Assembly: GCA_013375495.1 (NCBI GenBank)
Contig: JABXKC010000015.1
Location: 14,099-78,098 of the forward strand
From: Promethearchaeota archaeon
Lineage (GTDB): Archaea; Asgardarchaeota; Lokiarchaeia; Sigynarchaeales; SOKP01
Reading direction: 5' to 3'
DNA length: 64,000 bases
A program made the position numbers and the translations under genes. Of this stretch, positions 19,430-35,493 are shown piece after piece. The stretch's first letter is position 1. The number at the start of each line of letters is the position of its first letter. The notes beneath the pieces are model-generated. The model had not been told where the DNA came from. It saw only the letters and a program-made list of their open reading frames with translations, and did not search any database.

Positions 19430-19444
19430 ATCAGAATAATTATT

Positions 19445-19455
19445 TCGTGGAATTG
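19445..19455 (+). promoter_or_regulatory. GTGGAA motif, site 2
   Basis: TCGTGGAATTG, identical in 11 bases to the site before orc1/cdc6 at 17398 and followed, after TG, by the same AAAT. It sits in the 71-base spacer between the DUF2240-like gene and polB. Repetition flanking orc1/cdc6 supports an initiator-binding role. Confidence 0.35.
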
Positions 19456-19500
19456 TGAAATTTATTTGAATACACCTATCATGTCGTTAGTTTTACAAAT

Positions 19501-21264
19501 TTAATCGATTTTTTTAAAGTCTAATTGGAAATAGTTCAAGGAATCAAGTTCTATTATTGGTATAATACCAGGAGTAGGATTTATTCCAAAACTTCTCATA
19601 AAATCAGTTTGAGCTTGAAAACATCCAGAATTAATGAGTGTCACATTCCGATATTTCCCCATTCCATTAATATGAATATGCCCTGTATGAAAAATATCTG
19701 GGATTTTATTTAATACAAGCATATCGCTATTGATAGGTGCTAATTGTGTCTTTTCACCAAATACTGGAGCGAGGTGCCTACAAATAAGGAATTCTTTCAT
19801 AGTTTCAATAGGTTTATTAATATCTAAATCGTGAATTAACCTATTTATGTCATGCATACTTTCTCCATGATATATCAGTGTATTAACATTGTGCGTTTTT
19901 ATAAGAGAAGGATTACCCAAACATTTAATCCCTAAATTAATTAAATCTTCACAATATTTTTTTGGTACGGCTGGTCGAGGTATTGCGTTTCTGACAGGTT
20001 CGTGATTACCCGACACATAAAACACCTTAATATATTCTGGAATTTCTGATAATAAATCTGAAGCTTTTTTGAACTGTTTAAATATATCTGATATAACTAA
20101 ATCTTCTTTTTGGTTAGGGTAAATTCCTATACCATCAATTAAATCGCCGTTAATGACGAGATATTTTATTTTACCCGCATTTTCTCTTAAAATCTTATTA
20201 CTACTTTTCCCGTTCAAAAATTTTAGAAACTTTTTAAATAAATCTTCTTCAAATTCTTTACTACCAATGTGAGTGTCAGATATTAATGCAATAGACAATG
20301 GATCAGGAGAACTATTTGGTTTAAAGTTAGTTGGAATATCGATTTTTGAAATATAATCAGCAAAAATTATTCCTTTTCTTCCGTTTTCACCAGGGTTATA
20401 TATTCCTTTGACAAAAAGCATCTGATCCCTGAAGGTTCTCTCAATAATGTTGACATATTCCAAATTTTTAGAATCATTCTGAATTAAAACGCTAATTTTT
20501 CCTGTTAAATCCTCTAGACTCAATAAAAAATTCCCTTTTTTTGTTTGATGTACATTTTCCACCAGACCAACAGTAGAGATTTCAACGCTATTTGATAATC
20601 TAAAAATATTATTTATATTCGTTGCTGAACTTGCTTCGGGTCTTTTTCTCATGAGATTTCGAAGCGTATTGTATTTATCGAGTGTTAATTCGTAAAAATC
20701 TTCATAACTCCCATTGGTGTATATTTTCCCAGTAGGGTCACTTATTACCTCAAATTTAAAATCATGATCCTTTGCGAGAGGTCTAAATGCAAAAACAGAT
20801 TTCGTCGATTCATAGATTTTAGCTTTATTTTTTATCGATAATGTTTTTTTTATTGGCGATGAATTAGGAATAACATGGCTCATTTCTTTAGGTAGAGAGG
20901 TTTCGATAATTTGTTTAACATTTTTTGGTTCAATTTCTTGTTTGAAATTTTCTGCAATTGATTTGTTTAGAGTTACCGCTATTTTACTTTTAGCTCCTTC
21001 TTTCAGAGGAAGAGAAAGGGATTTAGATAACGCTCGCTTTAGAGTCTTTTGTAATTCTTCGTTTGATATTTCATGAACAATATTTTCCGTTAAATGACTT
21101 TTAAATGAGGGAATGAAACTAGTTTCCTTAATAAGCATGTTTATCTTGTTCATCGGATTTTCGAGATTTAGCACACAGTCTAACATTTTGGGACTAATGT
21201 TAATACCAGAATTAACTAATTTTTTTAAAATTACTTGTTTCTGTTCAGATATCTCGGTCTTCAA
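19501..21264 (-). CDS. polB: DNA polymerase D small subunit (DP1)
   Basis: 587 residues. DP1 provides the 3'-5' exonuclease of the archaeal replicative polymerase PolD. The C-terminal phosphoesterase domain keeps all metal motifs: DTHIG (about 343), NGDLIDG (about 385), GNHE (about 435), the His in YHGESMHD and GHIHINGMG near 530. An OB-fold region precedes it (about 200-330). The N-terminal 190 residues are poorly conserved and Lys/Ser-rich, as in other DP1s. The large subunit begins 270 bases away on the opposite strand, so the two genes are divergent rather than in tandem. Confidence 0.95.
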   Translation of the reverse strand: MKTEISEQKQVILKKLVNSGINISPKMLDCVLNLENPMNKINMLIKETSFIPSFKSHLTENIVHEISNEELQKTLKRALSKSLSLPLKEGAKSKIAVTLNKSIAENFKQEIEPKNVKQIIETSLPKEMSHVIPNSSPIKKTLSIKNKAKIYESTKSVFAFRPLAKDHDFKFEVISDPTGKIYTNGSYEDFYELTLDKYNTLRNLMRKRPEASSATNINNIFRLSNSVEISTVGLVENVHQTKKGNFLLSLEDLTGKISVLIQNDSKNLEYVNIIERTFRDQMLFVKGIYNPGENGRKGIIFADYISKIDIPTNFKPNSSPDPLSIALISDTHIGSKEFEEDLFKKFLKFLNGKSSNKILRENAGKIKYLVINGDLIDGIGIYPNQKEDLVISDIFKQFKKASDLLSEIPEYIKVFYVSGNHEPVRNAIPRPAVPKKYCEDLINLGIKCLGNPSLIKTHNVNTLIYHGESMHDINRLIHDLDINKPIETMKEFLICRHLAPVFGEKTQLAPINSDMLVLNKIPDIFHTGHIHINGMGKYRNVTLINSGCFQAQTDFMRSFGINPTPGIIPIIELDSLNYFQLDFKKID

Positions 21265-21532
21265 ATCACTTTTAACCAGAATAGAATTAATTTATTTATA
21301 AAATGATACAATTAAATTGTTTATTATTAAAGAACAAACAAATTTTTTTAAGTATTAGGAGTGTGTATCAATTGTCATACTTTCATTATAAACTGTGAAT
21401 CTCCTCAAATTCTTATAATAAAATTCAACTAACCTATTAATAGAATATTTTATTTTAAAAGTCAGAATTTAAAATTATGTATCTAGTTTTCAACATTGAG
21501 AGTATTTTAGTAATTTTAAAGTGCGTTGTATT

Positions 21533-24500
21533 ATGGTAGAAATGAGCAAAGAAACAGAGGAATATTTTTCTAACTTACAAAAAGGTGTAGATGAGTGTTA
21601 CGAAATTGCTGAAAATGCTCGCCAAAAAGGGTTAGATCCTGAAATCTTCGTAGAATCTCCTCAAGCTAAAGATTTAGCGGGAAGAGTTGAAAAACTCGTG
21701 GGTCCTCAAGGAGTAGCTAAATTAATAAGAAAATTAAAAATTCTGGGTAAATCTGAGGATGAAATAGTATTTCAAGTAGTTTCTGATATTCTTGGGCAGA
21801 AAATTGGAGTTATTAACTCACTCGAAGAGAGAGTTGAGAGAGCGATACGTGTTGGGCTTGCTATAAAAACGATGGGTGTTGTTAGTGCCCCACTTGAAGG
21901 GATTTCCAAAATCTTAATACGAGAGGATCAACACCACAATAAGTATTTATCGCTGTATTTTGCGGGACCTATTAGAGCCGCAGGAGGGACAACAGCCGCA
22001 TTATGTGTTTTAATTGCGGATTATGTGAGGAAAAAGTCAAATATTCCAAAATATGAAGCAACTGAGGGTGAAATTGGGAGATATGTAGAAGAAGTTAAAC
22101 TTTACGACAGACGAGTTCATTTACAATATCCATCCTCAAATGATGAAATACGATTTGCAGTAGAGCATCTACCCGTGGAAATAAACGGAGATTCCACTGA
22201 AGATGAAGAAGTCTCTGCTTTTAGGAAACTTCCGAGAATCAAAACAAATAAAATAAGAGGTGGTGCTTGTCTAGTTTTAAACGATGGTATCCTTCTCAAA
22301 GCTCCAAAACTTCTAAAAATTGCAAAAAGTATGAACTTGGAAGGTTGGGATTGGTTAGGGAAACTGAAAGATATCGCACAGAAAGATGAAAAGAAAGTTG
22401 ATTTAGACGCCACGGATAAAAACAGTAAGGTAATTATTCCACCTAATTCAAAATATGTTTCTGATGTTATCGCGGGGAGACCTGTATTTAGTCATCCTTC
22501 TGAAATTGGTGGACATAGAATTCGATACGGAAGATCCCGAAACACAGGATTAGCTGCGGCTGGGTTACATCCTGTAACAATGACACTATTAGATGATTTT
22601 ATTGCAATTGGCACGCAATTAAGAATTGAAAGGCCAGGAAAAAGTGCAAGTATCTGTCCGGTTAGCTCAATAGAGCCCCCGATTGTAAAGTTGAAAAATG
22701 GGACTGTGATGAAAATTCCAAACATAAAAATGGCAAAAGAATGCTTTCAAAACATAGAAAAGATTCTGTTTTTGGGCGATATCCTTTTTGGGTTTGGTGA
22801 ATTTTCTGAAAACAATCATAAATTAGTTCCTTCGGGTTACGTTGAAGAATGGTGGGCTCTAGAATTAGAGGATGCGATACAAAATTCTAACTTGGAGTTG
22901 ACTAAGTATATAGAAAATCCATTTAATAATATTCCTTCCGCTAAAGAAGCTTTAGATATAGCCGAGAAATATAAGATACCTCTTCATCCAAAGTATACTG
23001 ATTTCTGGGGAAATATATCAGGGGGAGAATTATTAAATCTAAGGGAAGCTTTAGTTTCCGGATATAACAAGAGTACCAACAGAATCGGTTTAAAAAACAC
23101 TAAAGAATTGAAGGATATTTTAGAAAAAGCGTTTATTTCTCATACGATTGATGATTCGAATATAAAATTGGATGATTTAACAAATGAAATTTTCATATCT
23201 ATATTTGATTTGAAGAATAAAAAAGATCACAATCTAACTAAAGATAATGATGTTTTTACTCTTTTTTCAATGTTTTCTCCAATAGAAATTAGAAATAAGG
23301 CTCCATTTTTCATGGGTACTCGTATGGGACGACCTGAGAAGTCCGAAAGAAAAAGCATGAAAGGAGTTCAGAGTTTATTCCCACTTAGTGACAAGGTGGG
23401 GAACACAAGATCTATAGAGAAAGCTGTAGAACTTGGAAAGGTAAAGATTGACATTTGTAGAAAGAAATGTCCTAAATGTAACGCAATTACTCCCTTTAAC
23501 CTATGTCCTAAATGCGGAACGCACACAGAGTTTCAGAAGATATGTCTTAAATGCAATAAGTATTATCCTAAAAACGAAGAAAAATGCCATCAATGCGGGG
23601 GATTACTGAATTTTTCTAAAGAAGCTTCCTTCAATATTAAAAATTATACTGAATCTTTATCGAATTCGCTAAATGTCAGGTTACCAAGTAAATTTAAGGG
23701 AATTCTTGGATTAACCAATAAGTTTAAAGTTCCAGAACCAATAGTTAAGGGAATGCTCAGAGCTAAAAACGGATTAATGGTTTATAAAACTGCTGAAATA
23801 CGTTACGATGCCACTGATATCCCATTAACTCATTTCAAACCAAAAGAAATCAACACACCAGTACGCAGATTAATAGAACTAGGATATAAAAAAGATTACA
23901 AAAATAATGATTTAACCACTCCTGATCAGATACTAGAACTTCAAGTGCAAGATGTTCTATTATCTGATGATTGTGCTGACTATTTCGTGAAGATTGCTAA
24001 TTTTATAGACGACGAACTAGAGTATTTTTATAAGATGGACAGGTTTTATCAAATTTCGAAAAGAGAAGACTTAATTGGCCACTTAGTAGTAGGTCTAGCA
24101 CCTCATACTAGTGCCGGAATTGTAGGAAGAATTATTGGCTTTAGCCCCGCCCGATCAATATACGCTCACCCGTTTTGGCATGCCGCTAAACGTCGTAATT
24201 GTGATGGAGATGAAGATGGGATTATGCTTCTTTTAGATCCTCTTTTAAACTTCTCTAGGTTTTATTTACCGAGTAAAATAGGAGGTAGAATGGACGCCAC
24301 TCTCGTTATATCTTCGGTGTTAGACCCTAATGAAATAGATAGCGAAGCTCATAATATAGACACTCTATATAAATACCCTTTAGAGTTTTATAAGGCAACT
24401 CAGAAGTATGTTATGCCCTTAGAAATAGAAGAAGTAATGAATTTAGTAAAAAAACGATTAGGAACTTCCGATCAATACATAAATCTTGGTTTTAATATCC

Positions 24501-24958
24501 CAACTAGAGATATTAACGAAGGCCCTCTAACCACAGCATATAAAACTTATATAACTATGGAAGAAAAAATCAACGCTCAATTGCATCTTGCAAAAATTAT
24601 TAAAGCTGTCAACGAGAAAAATGTTGCTGAAAAGATTTTAGCTACTCATTTCAACCCAGACATCTTAGGAAATTTACGAAAATTTGCTGTGCAGAATTTT
24701 AGATGCGTAAAATGTAATGAAAAATTTGCCCGTCCACCCCTTTCAAACGCGGGAAAGTGCCCAAAATGTGGTAATAAAGTCATATTGACAGTTAATCGAG
24801 GAGGCATCGAAAAATACATCCCTAGAGCTATAAACCTGTGCAAAGTTTTTAACTTAGACGATTATACAATTCAGAGGATGGAATTAATAGAAGAATATGT
24901 TGAAAGTCTTACTAATAATCCTAAGATAAAGCAACAGAAGTTATCTAATTTCTTTTGA
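21533..24958 (+). CDS. polC: DNA polymerase D large subunit (DP2)
   Basis: About 1141 residues, the normal length for an intein-free DP2. This is the catalytic subunit, with a double-psi beta-barrel active site like RNA polymerase. The catalytic motif is intact (AAKRRNCDGDEDGIMLLLD). Three or four zinc modules are visible (CRKKCPKC, LCPKCGTH, CLKCNKYY and a late CVKCNEKFA with CPKCGNK). The N-terminus (about 15-130) matches the family pattern YFSNLQKGVDECYEIA and GRVEKLVGPQGVAK. The frame opens at GTG 21521, but ATG at 21533 or 21542 fits the family better. The C-terminus ends KLSNFF, a plausible PCNA-binding tail. Confidence 0.96.
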   Translation: MVEMSKETEEYFSNLQKGVDECYEIAENARQKGLDPEIFVESPQAKDLAGRVEKLVGPQGVAKLIRKLKILGKSEDEIVFQVVSDILGQKIGVINSLEERVERAIRVGLAIKTMGVVSAPLEGISKILIREDQHHNKYLSLYFAGPIRAAGGTTAALCVLIADYVRKKSNIPKYEATEGEIGRYVEEVKLYDRRVHLQYPSSNDEIRFAVEHLPVEINGDSTEDEEVSAFRKLPRIKTNKIRGGACLVLNDGILLKAPKLLKIAKSMNLEGWDWLGKLKDIAQKDEKKVDLDATDKNSKVIIPPNSKYVSDVIAGRPVFSHPSEIGGHRIRYGRSRNTGLAAAGLHPVTMTLLDDFIAIGTQLRIERPGKSASICPVSSIEPPIVKLKNGTVMKIPNIKMAKECFQNIEKILFLGDILFGFGEFSENNHKLVPSGYVEEWWALELEDAIQNSNLELTKYIENPFNNIPSAKEALDIAEKYKIPLHPKYTDFWGNISGGELLNLREALVSGYNKSTNRIGLKNTKELKDILEKAFISHTIDDSNIKLDDLTNEIFISIFDLKNKKDHNLTKDNDVFTLFSMFSPIEIRNKAPFFMGTRMGRPEKSERKSMKGVQSLFPLSDKVGNTRSIEKAVELGKVKIDICRKKCPKCNAITPFNLCPKCGTHTEFQKICLKCNKYYPKNEEKCHQCGGLLNFSKEASFNIKNYTESLSNSLNVRLPSKFKGILGLTNKFKVPEPIVKGMLRAKNGLMVYKTAEIRYDATDIPLTHFKPKEINTPVRRLIELGYKKDYKNNDLTTPDQILELQVQDVLLSDDCADYFVKIANFIDDELEYFYKMDRFYQISKREDLIGHLVVGLAPHTSAGIVGRIIGFSPARSIYAHPFWHAAKRRNCDGDEDGIMLLLDPLLNFSRFYLPSKIGGRMDATLVISSVLDPNEIDSEAHNIDTLYKYPLEFYKATQKYVMPLEIEEVMNLVKKRLGTSDQYINLGFNIPTRDINEGPLTTAYKTYITMEEKINAQLHLAKIIKAVNEKNVAEKILATHFNPDILGNLRKFAVQNFRCVKCNEKFARPPLSNAGKCPKCGNKVILTVNRGGIEKYIPRAINLCKVFNLDDYTIQRMELIEEYVESLTNNPKIKQQKLSNFF

Positions 24959-25028
24959 ACTTTTTAATATATATTTTATTTTTCGGTTATAATTTAGGTT
25001 CTATGCAGATTACAAATTTAGTAAAAAA

Positions 25029-25113
25029 TGCAGGAGGAGGGATTCGAACCCTCGAACTCCTATGAGACTAGAGCCTCGGTCTAGCACCGTTGACCAGGCT
25101 TGGCAACTCCTGC
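25029..25113 (-). tRNA. tRNA-Leu (GAG)
   Basis: Class II tRNA on the minus strand. The acceptor GCAGGAG pairs with CTCCTGC, the anticodon stem CTAGA pairs with TCTAG, the loop is CCGAGGC, there is a long variable arm (TCTCATAGGAGT), and the T-arm is GAGGG-TTCGAAT-CCCTC. Anticodon GAG reads CUC/CUU. Discriminator A73 fits leucine; CCA is not encoded. Position 33 reads C instead of the nearly universal U. No intron is present. Confidence 0.9.
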
Positions 25114-25376
25114 AAATATTCTTAATATAATCAGATATTTTTTTATTAATTTTCTTGAACTTAATAGCATTAAAGAATAGAAGCATTAAAAAATTTTTTT
25201 TTTGTTTTCTTTGATTAGATAATAGTGAAATGAAGTAGACACTGACTTTAATAGGAGAAATTTGCACATATCTTATAGGTATGTATTTAACAAAATTTTT
25301 ATTCATAAGTTTTAAATATTTATATAATTGGTTTGTTTAGAATTTGATTTAATAAGAAAAACGAAGTTTAGAAAGG

Positions 25377-26393
25377 ATGTCGGTTGATACAAAGAAATTA
25401 ACAGCCTTACTCCAATGGTATAAACAGAGCTTGGGTGAGGATTTAGTTGCGGTGCTTGTCGTAAATAGAGATGGTTTAATTATGGATTCTTTAATTGGTT
25501 CTTCAGAAAAAACACTTGATGAAGAAATAATTGGGGGAGTAAGCGCTTTAGTTGAACCGGTATTAACTAGAATCACGGAAGAATTTAGTTCAGGATCGTT
25601 CGGAACGGGAACTTTTGATACTGAAGAATACCGATTCATATTTTGCGAGTCCGGACCGGAAGCGGTTCTAGTTACTGTTTTAAATTCTTCATCTGGAGTA
25701 GACGCGGTTTTCCCTTACGCTTATTTGGCAGCTGAAAAGATTGCGCGAATATTTGATGGAAGAACTGTGAGTCCCGTTATTCCAAAATTAGTTTTAGAGC
25801 CTGGTGTAAATCATATCCAGCGAAAAGTAGATAAAGTTCAAAAAGTTAAAATTAAAGCTAAGGAATACGCTTTTAAATTAATTCTAGGCGGAGATGGCGC
25901 TGTAGGTAAAACGAGTATGGTACATCGATATGTTGAAAATGTTTTTGCTAAAGACTATAAATCAACTATAGGAACATCAATTATGAAAAAGGAATGCTCC
26001 TTCAAAGAGCTTGAAAGCACCGTTAGGTTTGTAATTTGGGACTTAGCGGGCCAAGCTCAGTTTAAACGGGTTAGACAGTCATATTTAGCTAATGCAGAAG
26101 CAGGAATTTTAGTTTATGACGTAACTAATCGAGCTAGTTTTGAAAATGTGGAACAAAATTGGTACAACGAGATTAAAAAAAGTTCTCCTAATATTGCGCT
26201 TATTTTAGTTGCGAATAAGATAGATTTAAAAGAAGAAAGAGTTGTTTCAAGCGCAGAGGGAGAATCGTTATCGAAGAAATTAAAGCTAACATATATTGAA
26301 ACATCTGCTAAGACGGGAGAGAATATAAATGATGCTTTCAAAATGCTCGCTCTACAAATTATTAAAAGGTATATAGAAACGCAGGACATATAA
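25377..26393 (+). CDS. Roadblock/LC7-small GTPase fusion protein
   Basis: 338 residues. Residues about 5-130 form a roadblock/LC7 (MglB-like) domain: a helix, VAVLVVNRDGLIMDS, a long helix, and paired strands ending VLVTVLNSS. A basic linker (about 145-160) leads to a Ras/Rab-type GTPase (about 165-335) with G1 GGDGAVGKTS, G3 WDLAGQ, G4 NKID and G5 ETSAK. Roadblock proteins act as GTPase regulators or scaffolds (MglB for MglA, Ragulator for Rag), so the fusion joins a switch to a possible regulator. There is no C-terminal prenylation Cys. An aaagga motif precedes the ATG closely. It ends at the tRNA-Thr gene, convergent. Confidence 0.92.
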   Translation: MSVDTKKLTALLQWYKQSLGEDLVAVLVVNRDGLIMDSLIGSSEKTLDEEIIGGVSALVEPVLTRITEEFSSGSFGTGTFDTEEYRFIFCESGPEAVLVTVLNSSSGVDAVFPYAYLAAEKIARIFDGRTVSPVIPKLVLEPGVNHIQRKVDKVQKVKIKAKEYAFKLILGGDGAVGKTSMVHRYVENVFAKDYKSTIGTSIMKKECSFKELESTVRFVIWDLAGQAQFKRVRQSYLANAEAGILVYDVTNRASFENVEQNWYNEIKKSSPNIALILVANKIDLKEERVVSSAEGESLSKKLKLTYIETSAKTGENINDAFKMLALQIIKRYIETQDI

Positions 26394-26394
26394 A

Positions 26395-26488
26395 TGGAGC
26401 CTTTGGGGGGAGTTGAACCCCCGATCTACTGATGATTCGAATTAATTAATTGTACGAATCAGTTGCTCTACGACTAAGCCACAAAGGC
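26395..26488 (-). tRNA. tRNA-Thr (CGU) with canonical 37/38 intron
   Basis: Minus-strand tRNA. The acceptor GCCTTTG pairs with CAAAGGC, followed by U73 and an encoded CCA. The anticodon stem ACTGA/TCAGT encloses TTCGTA, a 19-base intron (26434-26452) and A38. The splice region forms a textbook bulge-helix-bulge: central helix TTCG/CGAA, 3-base bulges TAC and TCA cut after their second base, and inner helix AATT/AATT. Spliced, the loop is TTCGTAA, with anticodon CGT. U73 agrees with archaeal tRNA-Thr. Confidence 0.9.
26434..26452 (-). other. tRNA-Thr intron
   Basis: 19 bases between positions 37 and 38, flanked by a symmetrical bulge-helix-bulge that the archaeal splicing endonuclease EndA would cut. 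RtcB, coded in this window, would join the exons. Confidence 0.85.
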
Positions 26489-26539
26489 TATTAATTGAAT
26501 ATAATAAATATAAATTTTAAAAAATTATAAAATTTTCTA

Positions 26540-27556
26540 ATGAATAAAAACGATATCGTTAGTGCAATAGGAGAAGTAAAGCTAATCCATATTATAGAAG
26601 AGATAATTCTTAAAAAAACGGGTAAAGAGTTAATTAGGGACGATTCTTTTTTTTTTGAAATTGACAATAGGAAAGATACAGACTGTTTAATTCTTAACTC
26701 GGATATGTTTAATGCCACAACCGACGCTCCTGTACAAATGAATTTTTATCAGATGGGACGGAAATCTGTTCTCATGAATATTAGCGATCTCGTTGTTAAG
26801 GGCGTAAAACCCGAAGCAATTATTGTTTCTTTAGGGTTTCCGGAAGAACTGAAAATCTTAAATTTTAAAAGTTTAATTGAGGGCATCGTTGATTATTCTA
26901 AAGCATGGAATTTAAAGTATCTTGGGGGAGATATTAATACTTCGCACGAGATTATTATAAATCCAACTGTCTTTGGTTTTAAGAGGCTTAATAAAATAAT
27001 TTACCGAAGCGGCGTAAAACCCGGTAATATTGTGGCAATTAACAATAAATTTGGTCTGACAGGTGTAGGGTTTGATATAGTTTTACACAGGAGTGGGAGG
27101 TTAGAAGATTTTCCTAACTATAAAAGAGCAATAAAAAGTGTGTTAGAGCCAAACGAATTGGGAATGGAAGGAATTATTTTGGCTGATAGTGAATTAGCAA
27201 CAGCTAGTATTGATTCTTCAGATGGATTATCGAAATCTTTAAAAGATTTAATGTTGTCAATTCCTAATTTGGGTTTTGAAATCGAATTTAATGAGAGTTT
27301 AATTCATCCTGATGCGTTACAATATTCTAAAGAATTCCTAATTTCGCTTGAAAAACTAGTCTTTAGCGGTGGAGAGGAATTTATTCATCTTTTTACAATT
27401 GACAGAAAAAACTTTAAGATCGCTCAAAAGTTGGTAAATTCTAAAGGTGGGAAATTAATTAAGGTTGGAAAAGTTATTCCTGAGGAGAAAATTTATTTTT
27501 TAAAAGAAGGAAAAAGGATTGAACTAAAAGATCAAGGATATGAACATTTCAAATAA
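26540..27556 (+). CDS. thiL: AIR-synthase-family kinase, ThiL-like
   Basis: 338 residues. The PurM/ThiL fold is shown by an early Asp pair (RDDSFF, about residue 34), an SDM segment near residue 54, NISDLVVKGVKPEAIIVSLGFP (about 79), GGDIN (about 132) and SIDSSDGLSKSL (about 226), the metal-ATP positions of thiamine-monophosphate kinase. ThiL makes thiamine diphosphate from the monophosphate with ATP. Several motifs deviate slightly from the consensus, so another AIR-synthase relative is possible. The ATG follows a spacer after the tRNA-Thr gene, on the opposite strand to it. Confidence 0.75.
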   Translation: MNKNDIVSAIGEVKLIHIIEEIILKKTGKELIRDDSFFFEIDNRKDTDCLILNSDMFNATTDAPVQMNFYQMGRKSVLMNISDLVVKGVKPEAIIVSLGFPEELKILNFKSLIEGIVDYSKAWNLKYLGGDINTSHEIIINPTVFGFKRLNKIIYRSGVKPGNIVAINNKFGLTGVGFDIVLHRSGRLEDFPNYKRAIKSVLEPNELGMEGIILADSELATASIDSSDGLSKSLKDLMLSIPNLGFEIEFNESLIHPDALQYSKEFLISLEKLVFSGGEEFIHLFTIDRKNFKIAQKLVNSKGGKLIKVGKVIPEEKIYFLKEGKRIELKDQGYEHFK

Positions 27557-27705
27557 CTTCACTTAAGGAAATTACTCTAGGACCATAGAACATACATGAT
27601 TACAGAAAAAGTTATAAATTATTCTAGATTTGATCTATTACAATTTTACTTATGTATCTTGTTTATAGAAAAAAACATTTGATCTTAGTAAAATGTATTA
27701 GTTTA

Positions 27706-27809
27706 GGGCCATTAGCGCAGGCAGGTAGCGCAGCAGGCTTTTAACCTGAAGGTCGTGGGTTCGATACAATCGTTCGTTTAGAATTAATGCGAAATTCCCA
27801 CATGGCCCG
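27706..27809 (+). tRNA. tRNA-Lys (UUU) with an intron in the T-loop
   Basis: The acceptor GGGCCAT pairs with ATGGCCC, with G73 as in archaeal tRNA-Lys. The D-arm is GCGC-AGGCAGGTA-GCGC and the anticodon arm is GCAGG-CTTTTAA-CCTGA, with no intron there. The T-stem GTGGG/CCCAC holds TTCGAT, 30 extra bases (27766-27795), then T. Removing them gives the loop TTCGATT. The junction folds as bulge-helix-bulge: central helix TTCG/CGAA, bulges ATA and ATT. CCA is not encoded. The mature length is 74 bases. Confidence 0.88.
27766..27795 (+). other. T-loop intron of tRNA-Lys (position 59/60)
   Basis: 30 bases interrupting the T-loop. The flanking TTCG and CGAA can pair, placing the cuts after the second base of each 3-base bulge, the same geometry as in the tRNA-Thr intron nearby. 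The inner helix within the intron is weak (CA/TG and little more), so the exact cut sites are inferred. Confidence 0.75.
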
Positions 27810-27954
27810 TATTTTTCTTTAATAGGTATAGTATCTGAGCTTAATCCTTAAATGAAATTCCAATTTTTACTGAAATTTAAAAAAATAATACCGATAAAAA
27901 TTAATTTTGCTAAAAATTAACAAACATAATAAAATTCTTTTCAAATTAAACTGT

Positions 27955-28965
27955 ATGCCCAATTCAGAATTTAAATTACCCTCTGACGAATCAGAGCAAT
28001 TATTAGTAAAGTCTCAAGATACAACAAATATAAATTATGGGAGCGATCCTCATAATAGAGATATAGAAGATCTCTTAAAGTATGGAGTTATCAACTTAGA
28101 CAAACCTAGTGGACCAACGAGTCACGAAGTTGTTTCTTGGGCGCGTAAAATATTAGAGATTGATAACGCAGGGCACGGAGGAACATTAGATCCAAAGGTA
28201 ACGGGAATATTGCCTTGCGCTCTTGGTAAAGCTACTCGAGTTTTGTCTGCATTATTATATGCAGGTAAAGAATATGTGGGAGTTATGTATTTACACGCAC
28301 CCGTGATGTTGAAAAAAATGGAAAAAGTATTTGAAATCTTTACGGGCAAGATTTATCAAACTCCTCCTATAAAATCGTCAGTAGTAAGAAGATTAAGAGT
28401 AAGGGAGATATATTACGCTAGCGTGCTTGAAGTGAATAAAAACCACGTGTTATTTAAAGTTGGATGCGAAGCAGGAACCTACATTCGAAAATTATGTTTT
28501 GATATAGGAGAAGCGTTGTGCTCAGGAGCTCATATGTTGGAACTAAGGAGAACTAGAGTTGGGCATTTTAAAGAAGATGAGAGTTTAATTAGCCTTCAAA
28601 ATCTAAAAGATTCTTATTCTCTCTATAAAGATGAGGGTGAGGAGTTTTATTTAAGAAAAATTATTTCACCGATGGAAAAAATTGTTTCCCACTTGCCTAA
28701 AATTTATGTAAGGGATACTGCTGTCGATGCGCTATGCCATGGTGCCGATTTAGCCTCTGCGGGAGTTTGTTATATTGATGCAAGAATTAAATCAGATCTA
28801 CAGGTTGTATATATGACTCTCAAAAAAGAATTGATTGGTTTTGGTACGGCAAAAATGGATGCTATGAAGATTTACAAAGCGAAGTCGGGCATTGTAGCTA
28901 AAACTAATAAGGTATTTATGGAACGAGGATTATATCCCAGGTGGAATGAAATCAAAAATAAATAA
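27955..28965 (+). CDS. truB: tRNA/rRNA pseudouridine synthase Cbf5 (TruB family)
   Basis: About 336 residues from the ATG at 27955; an in-frame TTG at 27907 would add 16 with no family support. Cbf5 is the catalytic subunit of H/ACA RNPs and also makes pseudouridine 55 in tRNA. The family opening is present (LLKYGVINLDKPSGPTSHEV), with catalytic Asp in GHGGTLDPKVTGILPCALG, substrate-site Tyr in GKEYVGVMYLH and a C-terminal PUA domain (about 250-330) beginning LPKIYVRDTAVDALCHGADL. It begins a plus-strand block with the methyltransferase and RNA polymerase genes. Confidence 0.94.
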   Translation: MPNSEFKLPSDESEQLLVKSQDTTNINYGSDPHNRDIEDLLKYGVINLDKPSGPTSHEVVSWARKILEIDNAGHGGTLDPKVTGILPCALGKATRVLSALLYAGKEYVGVMYLHAPVMLKKMEKVFEIFTGKIYQTPPIKSSVVRRLRVREIYYASVLEVNKNHVLFKVGCEAGTYIRKLCFDIGEALCSGAHMLELRRTRVGHFKEDESLISLQNLKDSYSLYKDEGEEFYLRKIISPMEKIVSHLPKIYVRDTAVDALCHGADLASAGVCYIDARIKSDLQVVYMTLKKELIGFGTAKMDAMKIYKAKSGIVAKTNKVFMERGLYPRWNEIKNK

Positions 28966-28982
28966 GAAGAAGCTCAGCAAAT

Positions 28983-29621
28983 ATGGATAAAAAGACCCAA
29001 CATTATTCAACTCAATTTCCTGATGTCAGAGTTAAAGTATATTCCGTTTCTGAAAGTCTGAGACATCACTTATATCTCTTTAAAACGGTTACAGGAGTAT
29101 TCTCGTTCAAAAAACTGGATTTAGGAACTAAAGTTTTTATAGAACACATGAAGATTCCAGAAAAGCAGTGTGTTTTACTTGATTTGGGATGTGGATATGG
29201 GCCAATTGGGATTGTATTAGCACAAAAGGCACCTCAGAGTACCGTATATTTAAGCGATGTTAATAAAAGAGCGCTTTGGTGCACAAGAGAAAACATAAAA
29301 TATAATTTAGCAGAGAGGTCAGGTAAAGTAATAGTTTTACCAGGAACTTATTTTGAACCTTTTAAGAATAAGAGCGTCAAATTTGATGGGATATATATGA
29401 ATCCCCCCTTACGTAATGGTAGGCGGGAATTTCTTACTTTATGTGAGGACATACCACGATATTTAAAATCCAAGGGACTGTTTCAATTCGTCATAAAAAA
29501 AAAAATGGGAGCAGAATATATACATAACTATTTGAAAAAACAGCTTTCGGAATTGTTTGAAATAATTGAGGTGACTTTTAAGAGATCGGGATACTGGATT
29601 TTCTATTTGATGTCCTTTTAA
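28983..29621 (+). CDS. Class I methyltransferase, RsmC-like
   Basis: 212 residues. SAM-binding motif I is LLDLGCGYGPIGIVLAQ (about 61-77), the acidic motif II is VYLSDVNKRAL, and the catalytic NPPLRNG (about 141) belongs to the N- or exocyclic-amine methylating group of the RsmC/COG2813 type. The first 50 residues show the family start (HYSTQFPDV and KTVTGVFSFKKLDLGT). The likely target is rRNA or tRNA. It starts 17 bases after cbf5, suggesting co-transcription of two RNA-modifying enzymes. Confidence 0.87.
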   Translation: MDKKTQHYSTQFPDVRVKVYSVSESLRHHLYLFKTVTGVFSFKKLDLGTKVFIEHMKIPEKQCVLLDLGCGYGPIGIVLAQKAPQSTVYLSDVNKRALWCTRENIKYNLAERSGKVIVLPGTYFEPFKNKSVKFDGIYMNPPLRNGRREFLTLCEDIPRYLKSKGLFQFVIKKKMGAEYIHNYLKKQLSELFEIIEVTFKRSGYWIFYLMSF

Positions 29622-29765
29622 ATATTTTACTGACATGTAATCGAATTTTTTAGCAATTTTCTATTTTCTGATTAGAAAAACAAAAGAAATTTTGAGTAAA
29701 AATGGAAAAATTTTTTAGAAATCGAATATTTTTTGAATTAATTAGCGAGGAAAGAGGCTTTTTTT

Positions 29766-30026
29766 TTGACTAAGAAAAGGAAAATAGATGTTTTACTTCA
29801 TGAACTAGTCCCTAAACATTACCTTCTGACAAAAGAAGAATCACAAAATTTGTTAGAGAAATATCAGATAAATATATCCGATTTACCTCAAATGTTTGAA
29901 AAGGACCCAGTTTCAGTTGCAATTGGTGCAAAAGAGGGAGATATTGTAAAAATTGTTCGGGAATCCCACACAACTGTAAAGAATATAAATTATTTTCGCT
30001 ACATCAAAAAAGAAAAAGTATCGTAA
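29766..30026 (+). CDS. rpoH: RNA polymerase subunit H (Rpb5 homologue)
   Basis: 86 residues, the archaeal length, equal to the C-terminal domain of eukaryotic Rpb5. Motifs are HELVPKHYLLTKEESQNLLEK, the middle LPQMFEKDPVSVAIGAKEGDIVKIVR and a YFRYI end. It sits in the jaw of the polymerase near downstream DNA. The start is TTG at 29766, without a clear Shine-Dalgarno sequence. It is followed by rpoB after 41 bases, as in many archaea. Confidence 0.95.
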   Translation: MTKKRKIDVLLHELVPKHYLLTKEESQNLLEKYQINISDLPQMFEKDPVSVAIGAKEGDIVKIVRESHTTVKNINYFRYIKKEKVS

Positions 30027-30067
30027 ATCTCTTTAATAATACTAATAAATTTGTAGGTTAATTAAAA

Positions 30068-33000
30068 TTGAGTTCTGAAAGATTATCTAATAGCGACAAA
30101 TGGGTTGTGCTAAAAAGCTTGTTTGATGAAAAAGGTTTAGTACGCCAACATCTCGATTCTTATAATAATTTTATAGAAGAAGAGATGCAAAGTATAGTTG
30201 ATGAGTCGGGTGAAGTAATACCTGATATTCCCGGATTTAAAATTAATTTTAGTAAAATTAAAGTTGGGGTACCTAAGGTTAGAGAAGCAGATGGTGCTAC
30301 AATGGAAATTACACCCATTGAAGCTAGGATACGGGAATTAAGCTATGCTGCTGATATTACATTAGAAATGACTCCTATAACTATTGATGAACGAACTCAA
30401 AGGGAAGAAGCGGAAGAAACTCTTGATATATATATTGGTAAAATACCAATCATGTTAAAAAGTTGCCGATGTCCTTTGGAAAGTTTATCTGAACAAGAAT
30501 TAATTAATAGAGGAGAAGACCCACTCGATCCTGGTGGATATTTTATAATTAATGGAACTGAACGGGTACTAGTAACACAAGAGGATTTAGCTCCTAATAG
30601 AATTCTAGCTGAAGAAGCTAGCCGAAGTTCCAGTGCTACACATCAAGCAAAGGTATTTTCCACGAGAAGTGGTTTTCGAGCACCAGTTACAATAGAAAGA
30701 AAGAAAGATGGAAACCTACGAGTATCTTTTCCTTCAGTACCTGGAAAAATTCCGTTGGCAATCTTAATGCGTGCATTAGGATTACACTCGGATAGAGAAA
30801 TCTTTGAAGCTATCTCCGAAAATGATGATATTCAAAAAGAGTTAATCCCAGTCATTGATGTTGCTTCTGAAATCCAAGTTTTAAAGGATCCGGAAAAATC
30901 TCAACAAAACTCTCTAGACTATATAGGAAAGAGGGTGGCAATAGGACAAACAAAAGATTATCGTATTAGAAGAGCACTTCAAGTCTTAGATCGATACTTA
31001 TTACCTCACGTTGGAAATGCGGAGGAGGACCGCATTAAAAAAGCTTATTATTTAGGACAAATGGCTCAGAAGGTTATGGAACTTGCTTTAATATTCCGCG
31101 AGCCTGATGATAAAGATCATTACGCTAACAAAAGATTGAAATTGGCTGGTGAGTTATTTACGTCCCTTTTTAGAGTTGCGTTTTTAAATCTTGTAAAAGA
31201 CATAAAATACCAACTAGAACGTACAGCCGTTCGAGGAAGAGCTCCTAATATTAAAACTGCTGTGAGAGCAGACGTAATAACTGAAAGAATAAGACATGCT
31301 CTAGCAACGGGTAATTGGGTCGGCGGTAAAGCAGGCGTTAGTCAATTATTAAATAGAACAAATCATGTAGGGACATTGAGCCATTTAAGGAGAGTTATAT
31401 CTCCATTAAGTAGAAGTCAACCTCATTTTGAGGCAAGAGATTTACACCCTACTCAGTGGGGTAAGATATGTCCCGCAGAAACTCCAGAAGGACCAAATTG
31501 TGGGTTAGTTAAAAATTTAGGACTAGCCTCTATTATCTCTGTAGGTACAGACGAGAGAGTAATCGAGAATATTTTGATCGATCTTGGAGTAATTCCTATT
31601 AACGAAGTGAAAAGTATAAAGGGGGAAAAAGTAAACATCTTTCTTAACGGTAAATTAGTTGGTATTCATCAAAAGTACAATCCCTTTACGAATCAGCTTC
31701 GAGAGAAGAGGCGTAGAGGTGAAATTGGTCAACACGTTAATATCGGTTATTATCACGATTCAAGAGAAATTCAAATAAATTGCGATGCTGGAAGAGCAAC
31801 TAGACCACTATTTATAATCAAAAATAAGCAATTACTTATCACAAATGAGGATATAGAAAAACTAAAGCAAGGCAAGTATACATGGACTGATTTAATTCAA
31901 AAAGGCGTTATAGAATATTTAGATGCTGAAGAAGAAGAAAACGCGTATATTGCGATGTTTGAAGAAGATATTACAGCAGAACACACACATTTAGAAATTT
32001 CCCCAGCAGCGATTCTAGGCATTTGCGCATCCATTATTCCATTTCCTGAACATAATCAGTCTCCACGAAACACATACGAAGCTGGAATGGTTAAACAAGC
32101 TTTAGGGCTTTTTGCGGCAAATATGCATTTAAGACTTGATACACGCGGTCATACGCTTCATTACCCTCAGCAACCTTTAGTAAAAACAAGCCCAATGGAG
32201 ATAATTGGAATTAATCGCCGACCAGCCGGCCAAAATTTCATAATCGGAATGATGAGTTTTGAAGGATATAATATTGAAGATGCGATCATTATAAACAAAG
32301 CCTCAATAGAGCGCGGATTAGCGCGAAGTCACTTCTTTAGAACTTACGATGCTGAAGAAAGGAAGTATCCGGGAGGAGAATTAGATAAATTCGAGATTCC
32401 AGAGAGAGGAGTTAGAGGATTCAAATCTGCTGAATCTTATAGGCTGTTATCTGAAGAGGATGGAATTATCGAACCTGAAACAGCTGTTAACGGTGGTGAT
32501 GTTCTAATTGGTAGAACGTCTCCCCCACGATTCATTAAATCTTACGAAGAATTTGAGTTAATGCAACCAAATAGAAGAGAAACTTCAAAAAACATGCGTC
32601 ATAATGAAAAAGGGATTGTAGATACAGTAATCATCTCTGAAACTGTTGATGGAAATAAATTAGTTAAGATTAAAGTTAGAGATTTACGAATTCCAGAGTT
32701 GGGAGATAAATTTTCTTCTCGACATGGTCAGAAGGGAGTACTTGGGCTCGTCCAACCCGCAGAAGACATGCCTTTCACATCAAATGGAGTAATTCCAGAT
32801 ATTATCGTCAATCCTCACGCCATGCCATCAAGAATGACTTTAGGACAATTATTTGAGGGTATTAGCGGGAAAATCGCCTGTGTAACGGGAAAATTAGGCG
32901 ATGCAACAGCGTTCGAGTGGAAAGATATAACGAAACTTCAAGAGCAATTAGTAGAAGCAGGTTTTGAATTTAATGGTAGAGAAGTGATGTATAACGGTAT

Positions 33001-33439
33001 TACCGGGAAAAAATACGAAGCCGGGATTTATTGCGCTCCAATTTATTATCAAAAATTATACCATCTCGTTGCAGATAAACTTCACGCACGAGCTAGAGGG
33101 CCCGTTCAAATCTTGACGAGACAACCAACAGAAGGTAGAGCAAGAGAAGGGGGCTTGCGATTTGGTGAGATGGAAAGAGATTGCTTAGTGGGCCATGGAT
33201 CGGCTCTATTATTAAAGGAGAGATTACTTGATGAGTCTGATCGAACAGTAATATTAGTATGTGAGAAATGTGGGCTTTTAGCGGTTTATGATCGAAACAG
33301 AGATAAGAGATATTGCCCAGTATGTGGAGAAGGGACTGTGATATCTAAAGTAGTATGCTCTTATGCTTTCAAACTTCTGCTTCAAGAAATGATGTCTCTT
33401 GGATTAGCTCCTAGACTTAAATTAAAAGAAAAAATATGA
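30068..33439 (+). CDS. rpoB: RNA polymerase subunit B (Rpb2 homologue), unsplit
   Basis: 1123 residues in one frame, so B' and B'' are fused. The start is TTG. Key motifs are seen: GGYFIINGTERVLVTQEDLAPN near residue 155, the fork and hybrid-binding regions around GNWVGGKAGVSQLLNRTNHVG, CPAETPEGPNCGLVKN, GYNIEDAIIINKAS, GDKFSSRHGQKG and the closing zinc ribbon CEKCGLLAVYD/CPVCGEG. The second largest subunit forms half of the active site. The usual downstream rpoA1 and rpoA2 are absent; the next genes point the other way. Confidence 0.97.
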   Translation: MSSERLSNSDKWVVLKSLFDEKGLVRQHLDSYNNFIEEEMQSIVDESGEVIPDIPGFKINFSKIKVGVPKVREADGATMEITPIEARIRELSYAADITLEMTPITIDERTQREEAEETLDIYIGKIPIMLKSCRCPLESLSEQELINRGEDPLDPGGYFIINGTERVLVTQEDLAPNRILAEEASRSSSATHQAKVFSTRSGFRAPVTIERKKDGNLRVSFPSVPGKIPLAILMRALGLHSDREIFEAISENDDIQKELIPVIDVASEIQVLKDPEKSQQNSLDYIGKRVAIGQTKDYRIRRALQVLDRYLLPHVGNAEEDRIKKAYYLGQMAQKVMELALIFREPDDKDHYANKRLKLAGELFTSLFRVAFLNLVKDIKYQLERTAVRGRAPNIKTAVRADVITERIRHALATGNWVGGKAGVSQLLNRTNHVGTLSHLRRVISPLSRSQPHFEARDLHPTQWGKICPAETPEGPNCGLVKNLGLASIISVGTDERVIENILIDLGVIPINEVKSIKGEKVNIFLNGKLVGIHQKYNPFTNQLREKRRRGEIGQHVNIGYYHDSREIQINCDAGRATRPLFIIKNKQLLITNEDIEKLKQGKYTWTDLIQKGVIEYLDAEEEENAYIAMFEEDITAEHTHLEISPAAILGICASIIPFPEHNQSPRNTYEAGMVKQALGLFAANMHLRLDTRGHTLHYPQQPLVKTSPMEIIGINRRPAGQNFIIGMMSFEGYNIEDAIIINKASIERGLARSHFFRTYDAEERKYPGGELDKFEIPERGVRGFKSAESYRLLSEEDGIIEPETAVNGGDVLIGRTSPPRFIKSYEEFELMQPNRRETSKNMRHNEKGIVDTVIISETVDGNKLVKIKVRDLRIPELGDKFSSRHGQKGVLGLVQPAEDMPFTSNGVIPDIIVNPHAMPSRMTLGQLFEGISGKIACVTGKLGDATAFEWKDITKLQEQLVEAGFEFNGREVMYNGITGKKYEAGIYCAPIYYQKLYHLVADKLHARARGPVQILTRQPTEGRAREGGLRFGEMERDCLVGHGSALLLKERLLDESDRTVILVCEKCGLLAVYDRNRDKRYCPVCGEGTVISKVVCSYAFKLLLQEMMSLGLAPRLKLKEKI

Positions 33440-33519
33440 TTTTTTTTCTCAATTCTTATTTTTTACTATATTACATTACATGTTTTATTCTAAAATAAAA
33501 AAAAAGGTTAAATTTTCAA

Positions 33520-33966
33520 TCATCCAAATTGAATAAACTGGTACAATTCTGGAATTAGAGAGTAAATAATGTACAATATGAACAATGTCAAAAGCGAAAC
33601 CCATAATGCGTGTTCCCAAGAAATCCCAAGTATGAATTTAGTTAGAGTTAATAACAAAAGAAAGAATATAATCGGGCCAAAATTCATCAGGTAGTTATGA
33701 CCTCCACCGTCAATAGCAGATCTTAAAGATGCTAATCCATCACCTAAAATATTCAGAACCATCATTATTGCTCCAACGATAATGGGAAGCACTAAAACCG
33801 ATATAAAAGCTAAGATCAGAATTAAAACCCATTTGTCTCGCGCTTTAGTTTTTGAAACCACTACAATGACAGCAATGTACATTATTAGAAATACTATCAC
33901 CGTTGCTAAGAGTAACCATAAGACGAAAAATAAAGGATCACCGATATTAATTATTTGAAATAACAT
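33520..33966 (-). CDS. Small membrane protein, four helices
   Basis: 148 residues with four predicted membrane helices (about 12-37, 47-72, 93-112, 117-140) and a basic loop (SKTKARDK) after the first. A Gly-rich loop (DGGGHN, about residue 86) separates the halves. No family is recognised. It is convergent with rpoB and on the same strand as another small membrane protein about 200 bases upstream; the two may form a unit. Confidence 0.65.
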   Translation of the reverse strand: MLFQIINIGDPLFFVLWLLLATVIVFLIMYIAVIVVVSKTKARDKWVLILILAFISVLVLPIIVGAIMMVLNILGDGLASLRSAIDGGGHNYLMNFGPIIFFLLLLTLTKFILGISWEHALWVSLLTLFILYIIYSLIPELYQFIQFG

Positions 33967-34170
33967 TTATTTTCTCCTACTTGTTGAATAGAATTTTATT
34001 AAGATATTAATTTAAGAAAAAAATATTCTCCTTCTTTTATAAATATTCATCATATTTTTTATTGATTATATTTGCAGTTAGAAAGATGGCAAAAAAAGGC
34101 TGTTATGTAAAAAATTAGTAAAAATAATATGATTTTACTTCTGGTCCGAATGGAAATTATATTAGATTTA

Positions 34171-34398
34171 TTATATTCCAAAAGTAATGAGGAAAAAGTG
34201 GAATGCAAACCCTAATAGGATAGCAGAAATGCTAATTGATATTATTGAGAGTTTAATTGATAATTCTCTTCCATATCTGGTATAGACAATTAAAACCGCT
34301 AAAGAAAAGAATCCAATGAAGAGAAAAACCCACGCCAAGACCCAAATAGTTATTGAAGGAACTTGAAAATCATCGATTTGAAGGAATAAAAATAACAT
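34171..34398 (-). CDS. Small membrane protein, two helices
   Basis: 75 residues with two membrane helices (about 14-36 and 48-72) separated by a short basic segment with YTRYGREL. No known family. It precedes the four-helix protein on the same strand, 204 bases away. The hydrophobic composition and clean start support a real gene, but little more can be said. Confidence 0.55.
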   Translation of the reverse strand: MLFLFLQIDDFQVPSITIWVLAWVFLFIGFFSLAVLIVYTRYGRELSIKLSIISISISAILLGFAFHFFLITFGI

Positions 34399-34514
34399 TA
34401 AAAATCATTACTTGTTTTTATGGTTTAAGTAATAACTTATCTTTTATTTTTTTTTAACTTTATTAATCTGATTTCATAAGTGTCGCCATGAGATAAAATG
34501 GTTGATAATTTTTA

Positions 34515-35399
34515 TTAAATTTTTGTAGAATTATAGATTTTTTTTGCTAATTTTATATATTTTGTGAGAAATGGTAAACCATTGAACTTATTCTCAAGGT
34601 AATTAACCAGGTCTTGAAATTCTAATTTTCTATGAAGACTTCCGTTTCTAAGCAGGGAAAAAATAAAAAAAATAAAATTTTTACGAAGAATTTTAAAATC
34701 TATAGAAAATTTATCAGTTCTCCTAAAAATATTAGATTCTTTCATAAAATGAAGCGTATTTTTTCTTATATTGTTCTCTATTTGTAAATTCTCTATATGT
34801 ATTGATATACTAAGAACAGAAGTTAAGTAATAGCTTTTATCGAAATATTTACATAAATAGAATCCGAATTTGAACACAGCCTTAGTAAATTCTCTCTTGG
34901 AAACCAAATTTTTCTCAGAAGAGCTACTTTCTTTTAGGCTTTTCTCTAGATGATAAAGGCTTCTTAGGAAAATATCATCGAAATCATATTTTAGATCAGA
35001 AATCTTGGGAAGTTGATTTCTTACATCTTTACCATATAAGAGTTGAGAGTTCTCTGGACGTTTCAAGTCTAAGATGCTCCACTCGTAATTAGCAAATGAC
35101 TCGTGGGCAAATACTTCTTTTTCTTTTAATCCTTGTAATGTATTATATCCTAGCCAAACATTAAAATCTTCGATATTTTTAGTTTCATATCGAACTTCTG
35201 TCCATTCAAGTTTAGGGATTTTATCGAAGGAATTAACTATGACAATTACATCGATATCAGTGTTTTTCCAATCAGAAGGAAGATTTTTATCAAAATAACT
35301 TCCTATACCATACACGCTGATGATATTATCTCTATAATTATCCTCTAAATAGTTGATAATGTTTGAAATTATACTATCTTTTGTTTTAATTTTGTTCAC
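34515..35399 (-). CDS. Nucleotidyltransferase-fold protein
   Basis: 294 residues. The N-terminal domain has the MNT core: SVYGIGSYFDKNLPSDWKNTDIDVIVIV (about residues 24-51), with the GS motif and two Asp residues spaced as in metal-dependent nucleotidyltransferases, followed by a third candidate Asp near residue 80. The remaining 200 residues are helical with conserved-looking Tyr and Lys, like AadA or kanamycin-type transferases. The gap between GS and DxD is longer than in most members. The substrate is unknown. It is transcribed divergently from the gene at 35494. Confidence 0.65.
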   Translation of the reverse strand: MNKIKTKDSIISNIINYLEDNYRDNIISVYGIGSYFDKNLPSDWKNTDIDVIVIVNSFDKIPKLEWTEVRYETKNIEDFNVWLGYNTLQGLKEKEVFAHESFANYEWSILDLKRPENSQLLYGKDVRNQLPKISDLKYDFDDIFLRSLYHLEKSLKESSSSEKNLVSKREFTKAVFKFGFYLCKYFDKSYYLTSVLSISIHIENLQIENNIRKNTLHFMKESNIFRRTDKFSIDFKILRKNFIFFIFSLLRNGSLHRKLEFQDLVNYLENKFNGLPFLTKYIKLAKKIYNSTKI

Positions 35400-35493
35400 T
35401 ACTTATTGCTTAAATTAAAATTTAAAGTTATGTTCTACTTATAATATCATTATTTAGATATTTATTATTAAAGAAATAATTTAACGAGTTAAG

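What the first reader, a model, noticed from the sequence alone, without database searches (positions are those of the whole stretch)
27706..27809. tRNA-Lys with an intron inside the T-loop
The T-loop of an otherwise normal tRNA-Lys(UUU) is interrupted by 30 bases between positions 59 and 60, while the anticodon loop has no intron. The flanks fold as a bulge-helix-bulge with a TTCG/CGAA central helix, the same geometry as the canonical intron in tRNA-Thr 1.3 kb away. Non-canonical tRNA introns are well known in Thermoproteales and need an endonuclease with broad specificity. In an Asgard-like genome this is unusual.
Basis: partly seen in the sequence, partly recalled or inferred. Interest (0 to 1): 0.72.

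Follow-up and report, generated by a model that had tools for sequence, protein, structure and literature searches.

The report
tRNA-Lys with a T-loop intron
A lysine tRNA gene in a Lokiarchaeia-type Asgard archaeon is interrupted in its T-loop by a 30-base intron of a known archaeal type, and relatives show the same gene with no intron or with inserts at other places.

Summary
Window 27706-27809 (+) is tRNA-Lys(UUU) with a 30-nt insert, 27766-27795, at position 59/60. G017 and G020 carry the same gene upstream of cbf5 without it (T-loop TTCGATT), which shows the empty site. In 40 T-arms from Lokiarchaeia a bulge-helix-bulge is kept by covariation: 122 double-change cells against 35 +/- 6 in shuffles, 0 of 500. 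In 24 of 24 relatives with this Lys-UUU allele no second Lys-UUU gene was found. The window encodes the ligase RtcB; relatives encode two EndA paralogs, the catalytic one with a lysine aligned to that of the Crenarchaea-specific loop. Likely route: EndA excision, RtcB ligation; no RNA data here. "Unusual for an Asgard" is not supported: T-loop inserts occur in 51 of 123 classified lysine-tRNA genes from 70 Lokiarchaeia genomes plus the window, and non-canonical tRNA introns are in print for other Asgards. New member of a known kind. The freshest lead is in G001 and G003, where this allele survives only as a 3' fragment behind an intact tRNA-Lys with a D-loop insert and a gene with weak homing-endonuclease similarity.

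The parts
27706..27765 (+). exon 1 of tRNA-Lys(UUU), positions 1-59
   Evidence: cloverleaf parse; the same 60 nt at 100% identity in relatives such as G002, G004, G005
27766..27795 (+). 30-nt intron at position 59/60 (ACAATC...GCGAAAT)
   Evidence: absent at the same site in G017 and G020; BHB covariation
27796..27809 (+). exon 2, positions 60-73 (last T-loop base, T-stem 3' strand, acceptor 3' strand, discriminator G)
27760..27763 (+). 5' strand of the BHB central helix (TTCG, T-loop 54-57)
27790..27793 (+). 3' strand of the BHB central helix (CGAA, inside the intron)
26398..26488 (-). tRNA-Thr(CGU) with a canonical 19-nt intron at 37/38, same TTCG/CGAA central helix
13528..15078 (+). RtcB tRNA-splicing ligase, the expected joining enzyme
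   Evidence: PF01139, E 1.3e-167
27955..28965 (+). cbf5 pseudouridine synthase, the neighbour that anchors the comparison
   Evidence: DKCLD, TruB_N, TruB_C_2 and PUA domains; 20 Lokiarchaeota loci and one Altiarchaeota locus found with it

Best explanation
The insert is an archaeal bulge-helix-bulge tRNA intron at the non-canonical position 59/60. The pre-tRNA folds so that T-loop bases 54-57 pair with the 3' part of the intron, leaving two 3-nt bulges. A heteromeric EndA (alpha with Tyr/His/Lys, beta without the His) cuts each bulge, RtcB joins the exons to the T-loop TTCGATT, and the 30-nt intron is released, perhaps as a circle. Shown: gene anatomy, empty site, covariation, RtcB in the window, both EndA paralogs in relatives. 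Inferred: cutting, ligation, the circle, EndA in this very genome, EndA subunit assembly.
For: Empty-site orthologs upstream of cbf5 in G017 and G020 with the same mature sequence. Forty gapless 47-nt T-arm rows, 35 distinct (11 of 51 T-insert genes, of other length or not measured, were left out): 91.6% of 595 cells paired, 122 double-change cells against 35.2 +/- 6.4 shuffled (0 of 500) and 22-48 in slid versions; central helix 94.3% paired, with six G-C to A-U changes at its last pair. No second Lys-UUU gene in 24 of 24 relatives with the allele. EndA family matches in 82 of 83 Lokiarchaeia genomes: two or more in 68, one in 14, none in 1. In 8 genomes read, alpha and beta both in 6, one of the two in G017 and in G020. 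Alpha matches A. pernix 3p1z_B at E 1.8e-35 with K-P-R aligned to K44-P45-R46; that this loop goes with broad substrate range is from PMC12397907 (passages). RtcB in the window and in 6 of 6 relatives searched. In G001 and G003, where only a 3' fragment of this allele is left, the T-stem (both) and the central helix (G003) have decayed.
Against: No RNA reads. The window's own genome is not held, so its EndA and a second Lys-UUU gene are untested. The window's inner intron helix is weak, and its T-arm alone folds no better than 23 of 200 shuffles. In two of five T-arms folded alone (L163, L162) the minimum-energy fold lacks the central helix as drawn. Of the 35 distinct rows, L152 and L193 miss three of the four central pairs and L207 and L208 one.
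Confidence: 0.95

Rival explanations
1. The locus is a decayed or unused tRNA copy, and another gene supplies tRNA-Lys(UUU).
For: Such decay exists nearby: in G001 and G003 the T-intron copy is a 3' fragment beside an intact tRNA-Lys. Two genomes without the T-loop Lys-UUU allele carry a further or unusual Lys-UUU-like gene that I left out of the count (L210 in G048, L212 in G046).
Against: The window's exons are identical to the intronless genes of G017 and G020; no second Lys-UUU gene in 24 of 24 relatives with the allele; the BHB covaries.
Confidence: 0.03
2. The 30 bases stay in the mature tRNA as an enlarged T-loop.
For: No RNA evidence excludes it here.
Against: Pairing at the junctions is conserved while the insert's middle varies; orthologs lack the insert or carry one elsewhere; EndA and RtcB are present in the lineage. 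T-loop to D-loop contacts need a normal T-loop (recalled).
Confidence: 0.01
3. Assembly or binning artefact.
For: The window may come from a MAG; its source is not told.
Against: A T-loop insert in Lys-UUU appears in 24 other genomes, with diverged but structurally consistent inserts.
Confidence: 0.01

Closest known systems
Non-canonical archaeal BHB tRNA introns, position 59/60 among them (Crenarchaeota, Nanoarchaeota; reviewed in PMC4090602, passages read)
   Same: position 59/60, BHB with a 4-bp central helix, EndA-type processing
   Different: host lineage (Lokiarchaeia); 40 of 51 T-loop inserts here are 30 nt
tRNA introns of Atabeyarchaeia and Freyarchaeia (PMC11291895, passages read)
   Same: Asgard hosts, introns often at non-canonical positions
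   Different: that paper reports 92-95% of tRNA genes with introns in three genomes of other Asgard groups; its supplementary tables were not read, so positions were not compared
Crenarchaeal (alpha-beta)2 splicing endonuclease with the Crenarchaea-specific loop (A. pernix 3p1z/3ajv; PMC12397907, passages)
   Same: two paralogs, Tyr/His/Lys in alpha, K-P-R aligned to K44-P45-R46
   Different: oligomer not shown here; the word Asgard does not occur in that paper's main text
Caldiarchaeum tRNA-Thr locus heterogeneity (PMC3293823, abstract and first part of the Discussion read)
   Same: an extra intron, a tRNA fragment and a mobile-element gene between fragment and intact tRNA, comparable to G001/G003
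   Different: there a recombinase gene and a 5' fragment; here a putative endonuclease gene and a 3' fragment

Membership tests
Archaeal BHB tRNA intron | removal restores a standard cloverleaf | tested here: met
   the joined 74-mer equals the intronless gene of G017 and G020
Archaeal BHB tRNA intron | two 3-nt bulges around a 4-bp helix at the junctions | tested here: met
   of 35 distinct rows 2 fit poorly and 2 miss one pair
Archaeal BHB tRNA intron | pairing kept by covariation | tested here: met
Archaeal BHB tRNA intron | EndA and RtcB in the same host | tested here: inconclusive
   RtcB in the window; EndA only shown in relatives, own genome not held
Archaeal BHB tRNA intron | spliced tRNA and excised intron observed | not testable with these tools
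   no RNA data
(alpha-beta)2 EndA of broad specificity | separate catalytic and structural subunit genes | tested here: met
   both in 6 of 8 genomes read, one of the two in G017 and G020; His present in alpha, absent in beta by alignment (which residues are catalytic is recalled)
(alpha-beta)2 EndA of broad specificity | Crenarchaea-specific loop with its lysine | tested here: met
   sequence alignment of the G002 alpha to 3p1z_B; no structure made
(alpha-beta)2 EndA of broad specificity | heterotetramer that cuts non-canonical sites | not testable with these tools
   needs purified protein
Intron transposition between tRNAs, as in Thermoproteales | introns of different tRNAs in one genome unusually alike | tested here: not met
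   only Lys-UUU against Lys-CUU tested: 8 genomes with 30-nt T-loop inserts in both, mean 14.5 of 30 identical, permuted mean 14.9
Group I intron | match to a group I family | tested here: not met
   none at gathering score in the window nor at E <= 5 in 20001-36000

The most novel reading that the evidence does not exclude
In two close relatives of the window (G001, G003) a mobile gene swapped the tRNA-Lys allele. First stands an intact tRNA-Lys(UUU) without the T-loop intron but with a 31-nt insert in the D-loop; directly adjoining, on the other strand and tail to tail, a 297-aa gene with weak homing-endonuclease similarity; then a 3' fragment of the resident tRNA, from the anticodon loop on, still holding the T-loop intron. 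On the Cbf5 tree G003 pairs with G002, which lacks this arrangement, at 99% support, and G001 is nearest to the window, which suggests repeated spread or loss. On this reading non-canonical introns mark alleles that a tRNA-targeting element no longer cuts or enters, so such elements drive intron gain, loss and change of position.
Probability: 0.25. Interest if true: 0.68.

Novelty: new member of a known kind. Interest (0 to 1): 0.42.

Why it matters
It adds Lokiarchaeia to the lineages whose tRNA genes carry introns at many positions, with an endonuclease that has the loop linked to broad specificity. The Lys-UUU gene beside cbf5 gives a natural series (no insert, T-loop, variable loop, D-arm; anticodon loop in some Lys-CUU genes), useful for asking how tRNA introns arise, and it bears on the ancestry of eukaryotic tRNA splicing. 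Such genes are easily missed: ARAGORN and the Rfam cut-off both missed this one.

Tried and rejected
Intron transfer between Lys-UUU and Lys-CUU: no within-genome excess (8 genomes). Fold search for the putative endonuclease: model mean pLDDT 81.8 and pTM 0.63, no PDB match at E <= 0.001, so the fold is not named. Pfam gave only weak HTH matches and a few other weak ones, all below cut-off. PHROGs: for the G001 protein the best match is a family of unknown function (3.5e-6), then a homing-endonuclease family (1.6e-4); two of three relatives match an HNH-endonuclease family (9.5e-12, 1e-10), the third (P0010) nothing. NCBIfam: nothing above cut-off. The window's own assembly could not be read.

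Limits of the Lys survey: 13 of 83 genomes gave no BLASTN match. Of the 135 match rows 127 were fetched; 122 were classified, plus the window. Not counted: L201 (Lys-CUU cut by a contig end), L210 (intronless Lys-UUU-like gene, G048), L212 (intronless Lys-UUU-like gene, G046), L220 and L221 (other tRNAs by eye). Not fetched: G013:C304 (seen in L013 as Lys-UUU with a variable-loop insert), G015:C160, G049:C24, two 3' fragments (G001, G003) and three rows that are second pieces of counted genes. Three T-loop cases (L155, L205, L206) were assigned by eye. In the G002 and G012 tRNA listings several parses are wrong and were not used.

Full report
What is there. Window 27706-27809 (+) is a tRNA-Lys(UUU) gene whose T-loop is 37 instead of 7 nt; the other arms are normal and the anticodon loop has no intron. 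The insert is 27766-27795 in the register that fits the bulges, position 59/60. ARAGORN does not list the gene and Rfam scores it below cut-off (26.0 against 29 bits).

Whose genome. Cbf5 next to the tRNA is 94% identical to that of a Candidatus Lokiarchaeota MAG, and 20 of the 21 loci found are titled Lokiarchaeota or Lokiarchaeia. No whole genome is held for the window.

Why it is an intron. G017 and G020 have the same gene upstream of cbf5 with T-loop TTCGATT and nothing inserted. Among 83 Lokiarchaeia genomes 70 had a Lys-tRNA match. Of 135 match rows 127 were fetched and 122 classified, 123 genes with the window's. Lys-UUU: 25 T-loop, 19 none, 16 variable loop, 7 D-arm. Lys-CUU: 26 T-loop, 25 none, 3 anticodon loop, 2 variable loop. 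Of the 51 T-loop inserts 40 are 30 nt, four 31, two 32, one 28, one 20; three were not measured. All 18 variable-loop inserts are 30 nt. On the 40 gapless T-arms the BHB pairs in 91.6% of cells with 122 double changes, against 35.2 +/- 6.4 in shuffles and 22-48 in slid versions. The window's nearest insert is that of G002, 26 of 30 identical. Against: the window's T-arm alone has a weak fold, and 4 of 35 distinct rows miss one or more central pairs. In 24 of 24 relatives with the T-loop allele no second Lys-UUU gene was seen.

Machinery. RtcB lies in the window at 13528-15078 and in 6 of 6 relatives searched. EndA family matches occur in 82 of 83 genomes, two or more in 68. In the 8 genomes first read the two paralogs differ: alpha has the Tyr, His and Lys known as catalytic (recalled), beta lacks the His. 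Alpha carries K-P-R aligned with K44-P45-R46 of A. pernix. PMC12397907 (passages) ties that loop to cutting of varied introns. Subunit assembly is inferred.

How common. In G002 a cloverleaf parse of 30 tRNA loci shows non-canonical inserts in at least 10 (T-loop in Lys-UUU, Lys-CUU, Arg and Asp; 5'-half inserts in Glu, Ile, Gly, Ser and Trp; variable loop in His); in G012 in at least 9 of 30 loci (T-arm in two Gly, one Ala and one more). These parses are automatic; several others in the listing are wrong, and by eye the Ile insert lies nearer the 5' end than the parser puts it. PMC11291895 reports the like for Atabeyarchaeia and Freyarchaeia (passages), and PMC4090602 lists 59/60 among known positions (passages). 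PMC8450103 does not mention Asgard in its main text (passages). I found no paper on Lokiarchaeia tRNA introns in the open-access PMC searches; subscription journals and tRNA databases were not searched, so this is no claim of priority.

Evolution. On a quick Cbf5 tree of 61 rows the T-loop state of Lys-UUU needs 9 changes, at least 6 by starred branches; the four states together need 15. Direction of change is not inferred. The window sits in a five-genome group (96% SH-aLRT) with G001, G002, G003 and G004.

The lead. In G001 and G003 the region is rearranged: an intact tRNA-Lys(UUU) with a 31-nt D-loop insert and no T-loop intron (L001 8699-8803, L003 8698-8802); one base on, tail to tail, a 297-aa ORF; then a fragment that matches the window from 27737 (L001) or 27739 (L003) onward, i.e. 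from the anticodon loop, and still holds the T-loop intron, with decay. Relatives of the ORF occur in 34 of 83 genomes. Of the 30 such places fetched, 7 hold tRNA genes in the fetched flanks, 12 tRNA matches in 103 kb; from 33 tRNA matches in 3.9 Mb of G002 about one would be expected, but the seven include three pairs that look orthologous, so about four are independent. The ORF family has invariant stretches such as AFEYDGIQHD and weak PHROG matches to endonuclease families; no fold match. Against a causal role: D-loop inserts also occur in G040, G041, G047 and G048, where the ORF has no match (G041, G048) or matches on other contigs only (G040, G047); 23 of 30 ORF places have no tRNA match nearby; the fragment begins in the anticodon loop, not the D-loop; identity of G001 to G003 is somewhat higher across the ORF (0.85-0.97 per 100 columns) than in the flanks (0.79-0.89), which does not settle how it spread. 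The nearest precedent is the Caldiarchaeum tRNA-Thr locus (PMC3293823).

Verdict. A real, most likely functional, non-canonical tRNA intron; ordinary for its lineage, and a new member of a known kind.

Noticed in passing
L001 8699-9856; L003 8698-9855: Intact tRNA-Lys with a D-loop insert, a putative endonuclease ORF and a 3' fragment of the T-intron tRNA-Lys in a row.
   Followed up: partly
L224 1033-2513; L225 1292-2772 (G005, G007): A longer relative of that ORF stands tail to tail, about 59 bp away, with a tRNA-Ser(GCU)-like gene whose 5' end seems interrupted near position 7/8 (by eye).
   Followed up: partly
L102 (G002), L234 (G052), L237 (G060): tRNA-Ile(GAU) with about 30 extra bases near position 9/10 and what looks like a duplicated tRNA 5' end just upstream (by eye).
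   Followed up: no
Lys genes of 70 Lokiarchaeia genomes and the window: Insert length is close to 30 nt at T-loop, variable-loop and D-arm positions alike; 18 of 18 variable-loop inserts are exactly 30.
   Followed up: no
L210 (G048) and L212 (G046): Intronless Lys-UUU-like genes unlike the one beside cbf5; in G048 in addition to the D-loop-insert gene.
   Followed up: no
window 27604-27641: AT-rich block AGAAAAAGTTATAAATTATTCTAGATTTGATCTATTAC, 65-102 bases upstream of the tRNA, is nearly unchanged in L001, L002 and L003; possibly its promoter.
   Followed up: no
window 17463-24958: An Orc1/Cdc6-like gene, a DNA polymerase small-subunit-like phosphoesterase gene and the DP2 large subunit lie near each other.
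   Followed up: no
window 25377-26393 and 45914-47728: Two Ras-family small GTPase genes with long extra regions.
   Followed up: no
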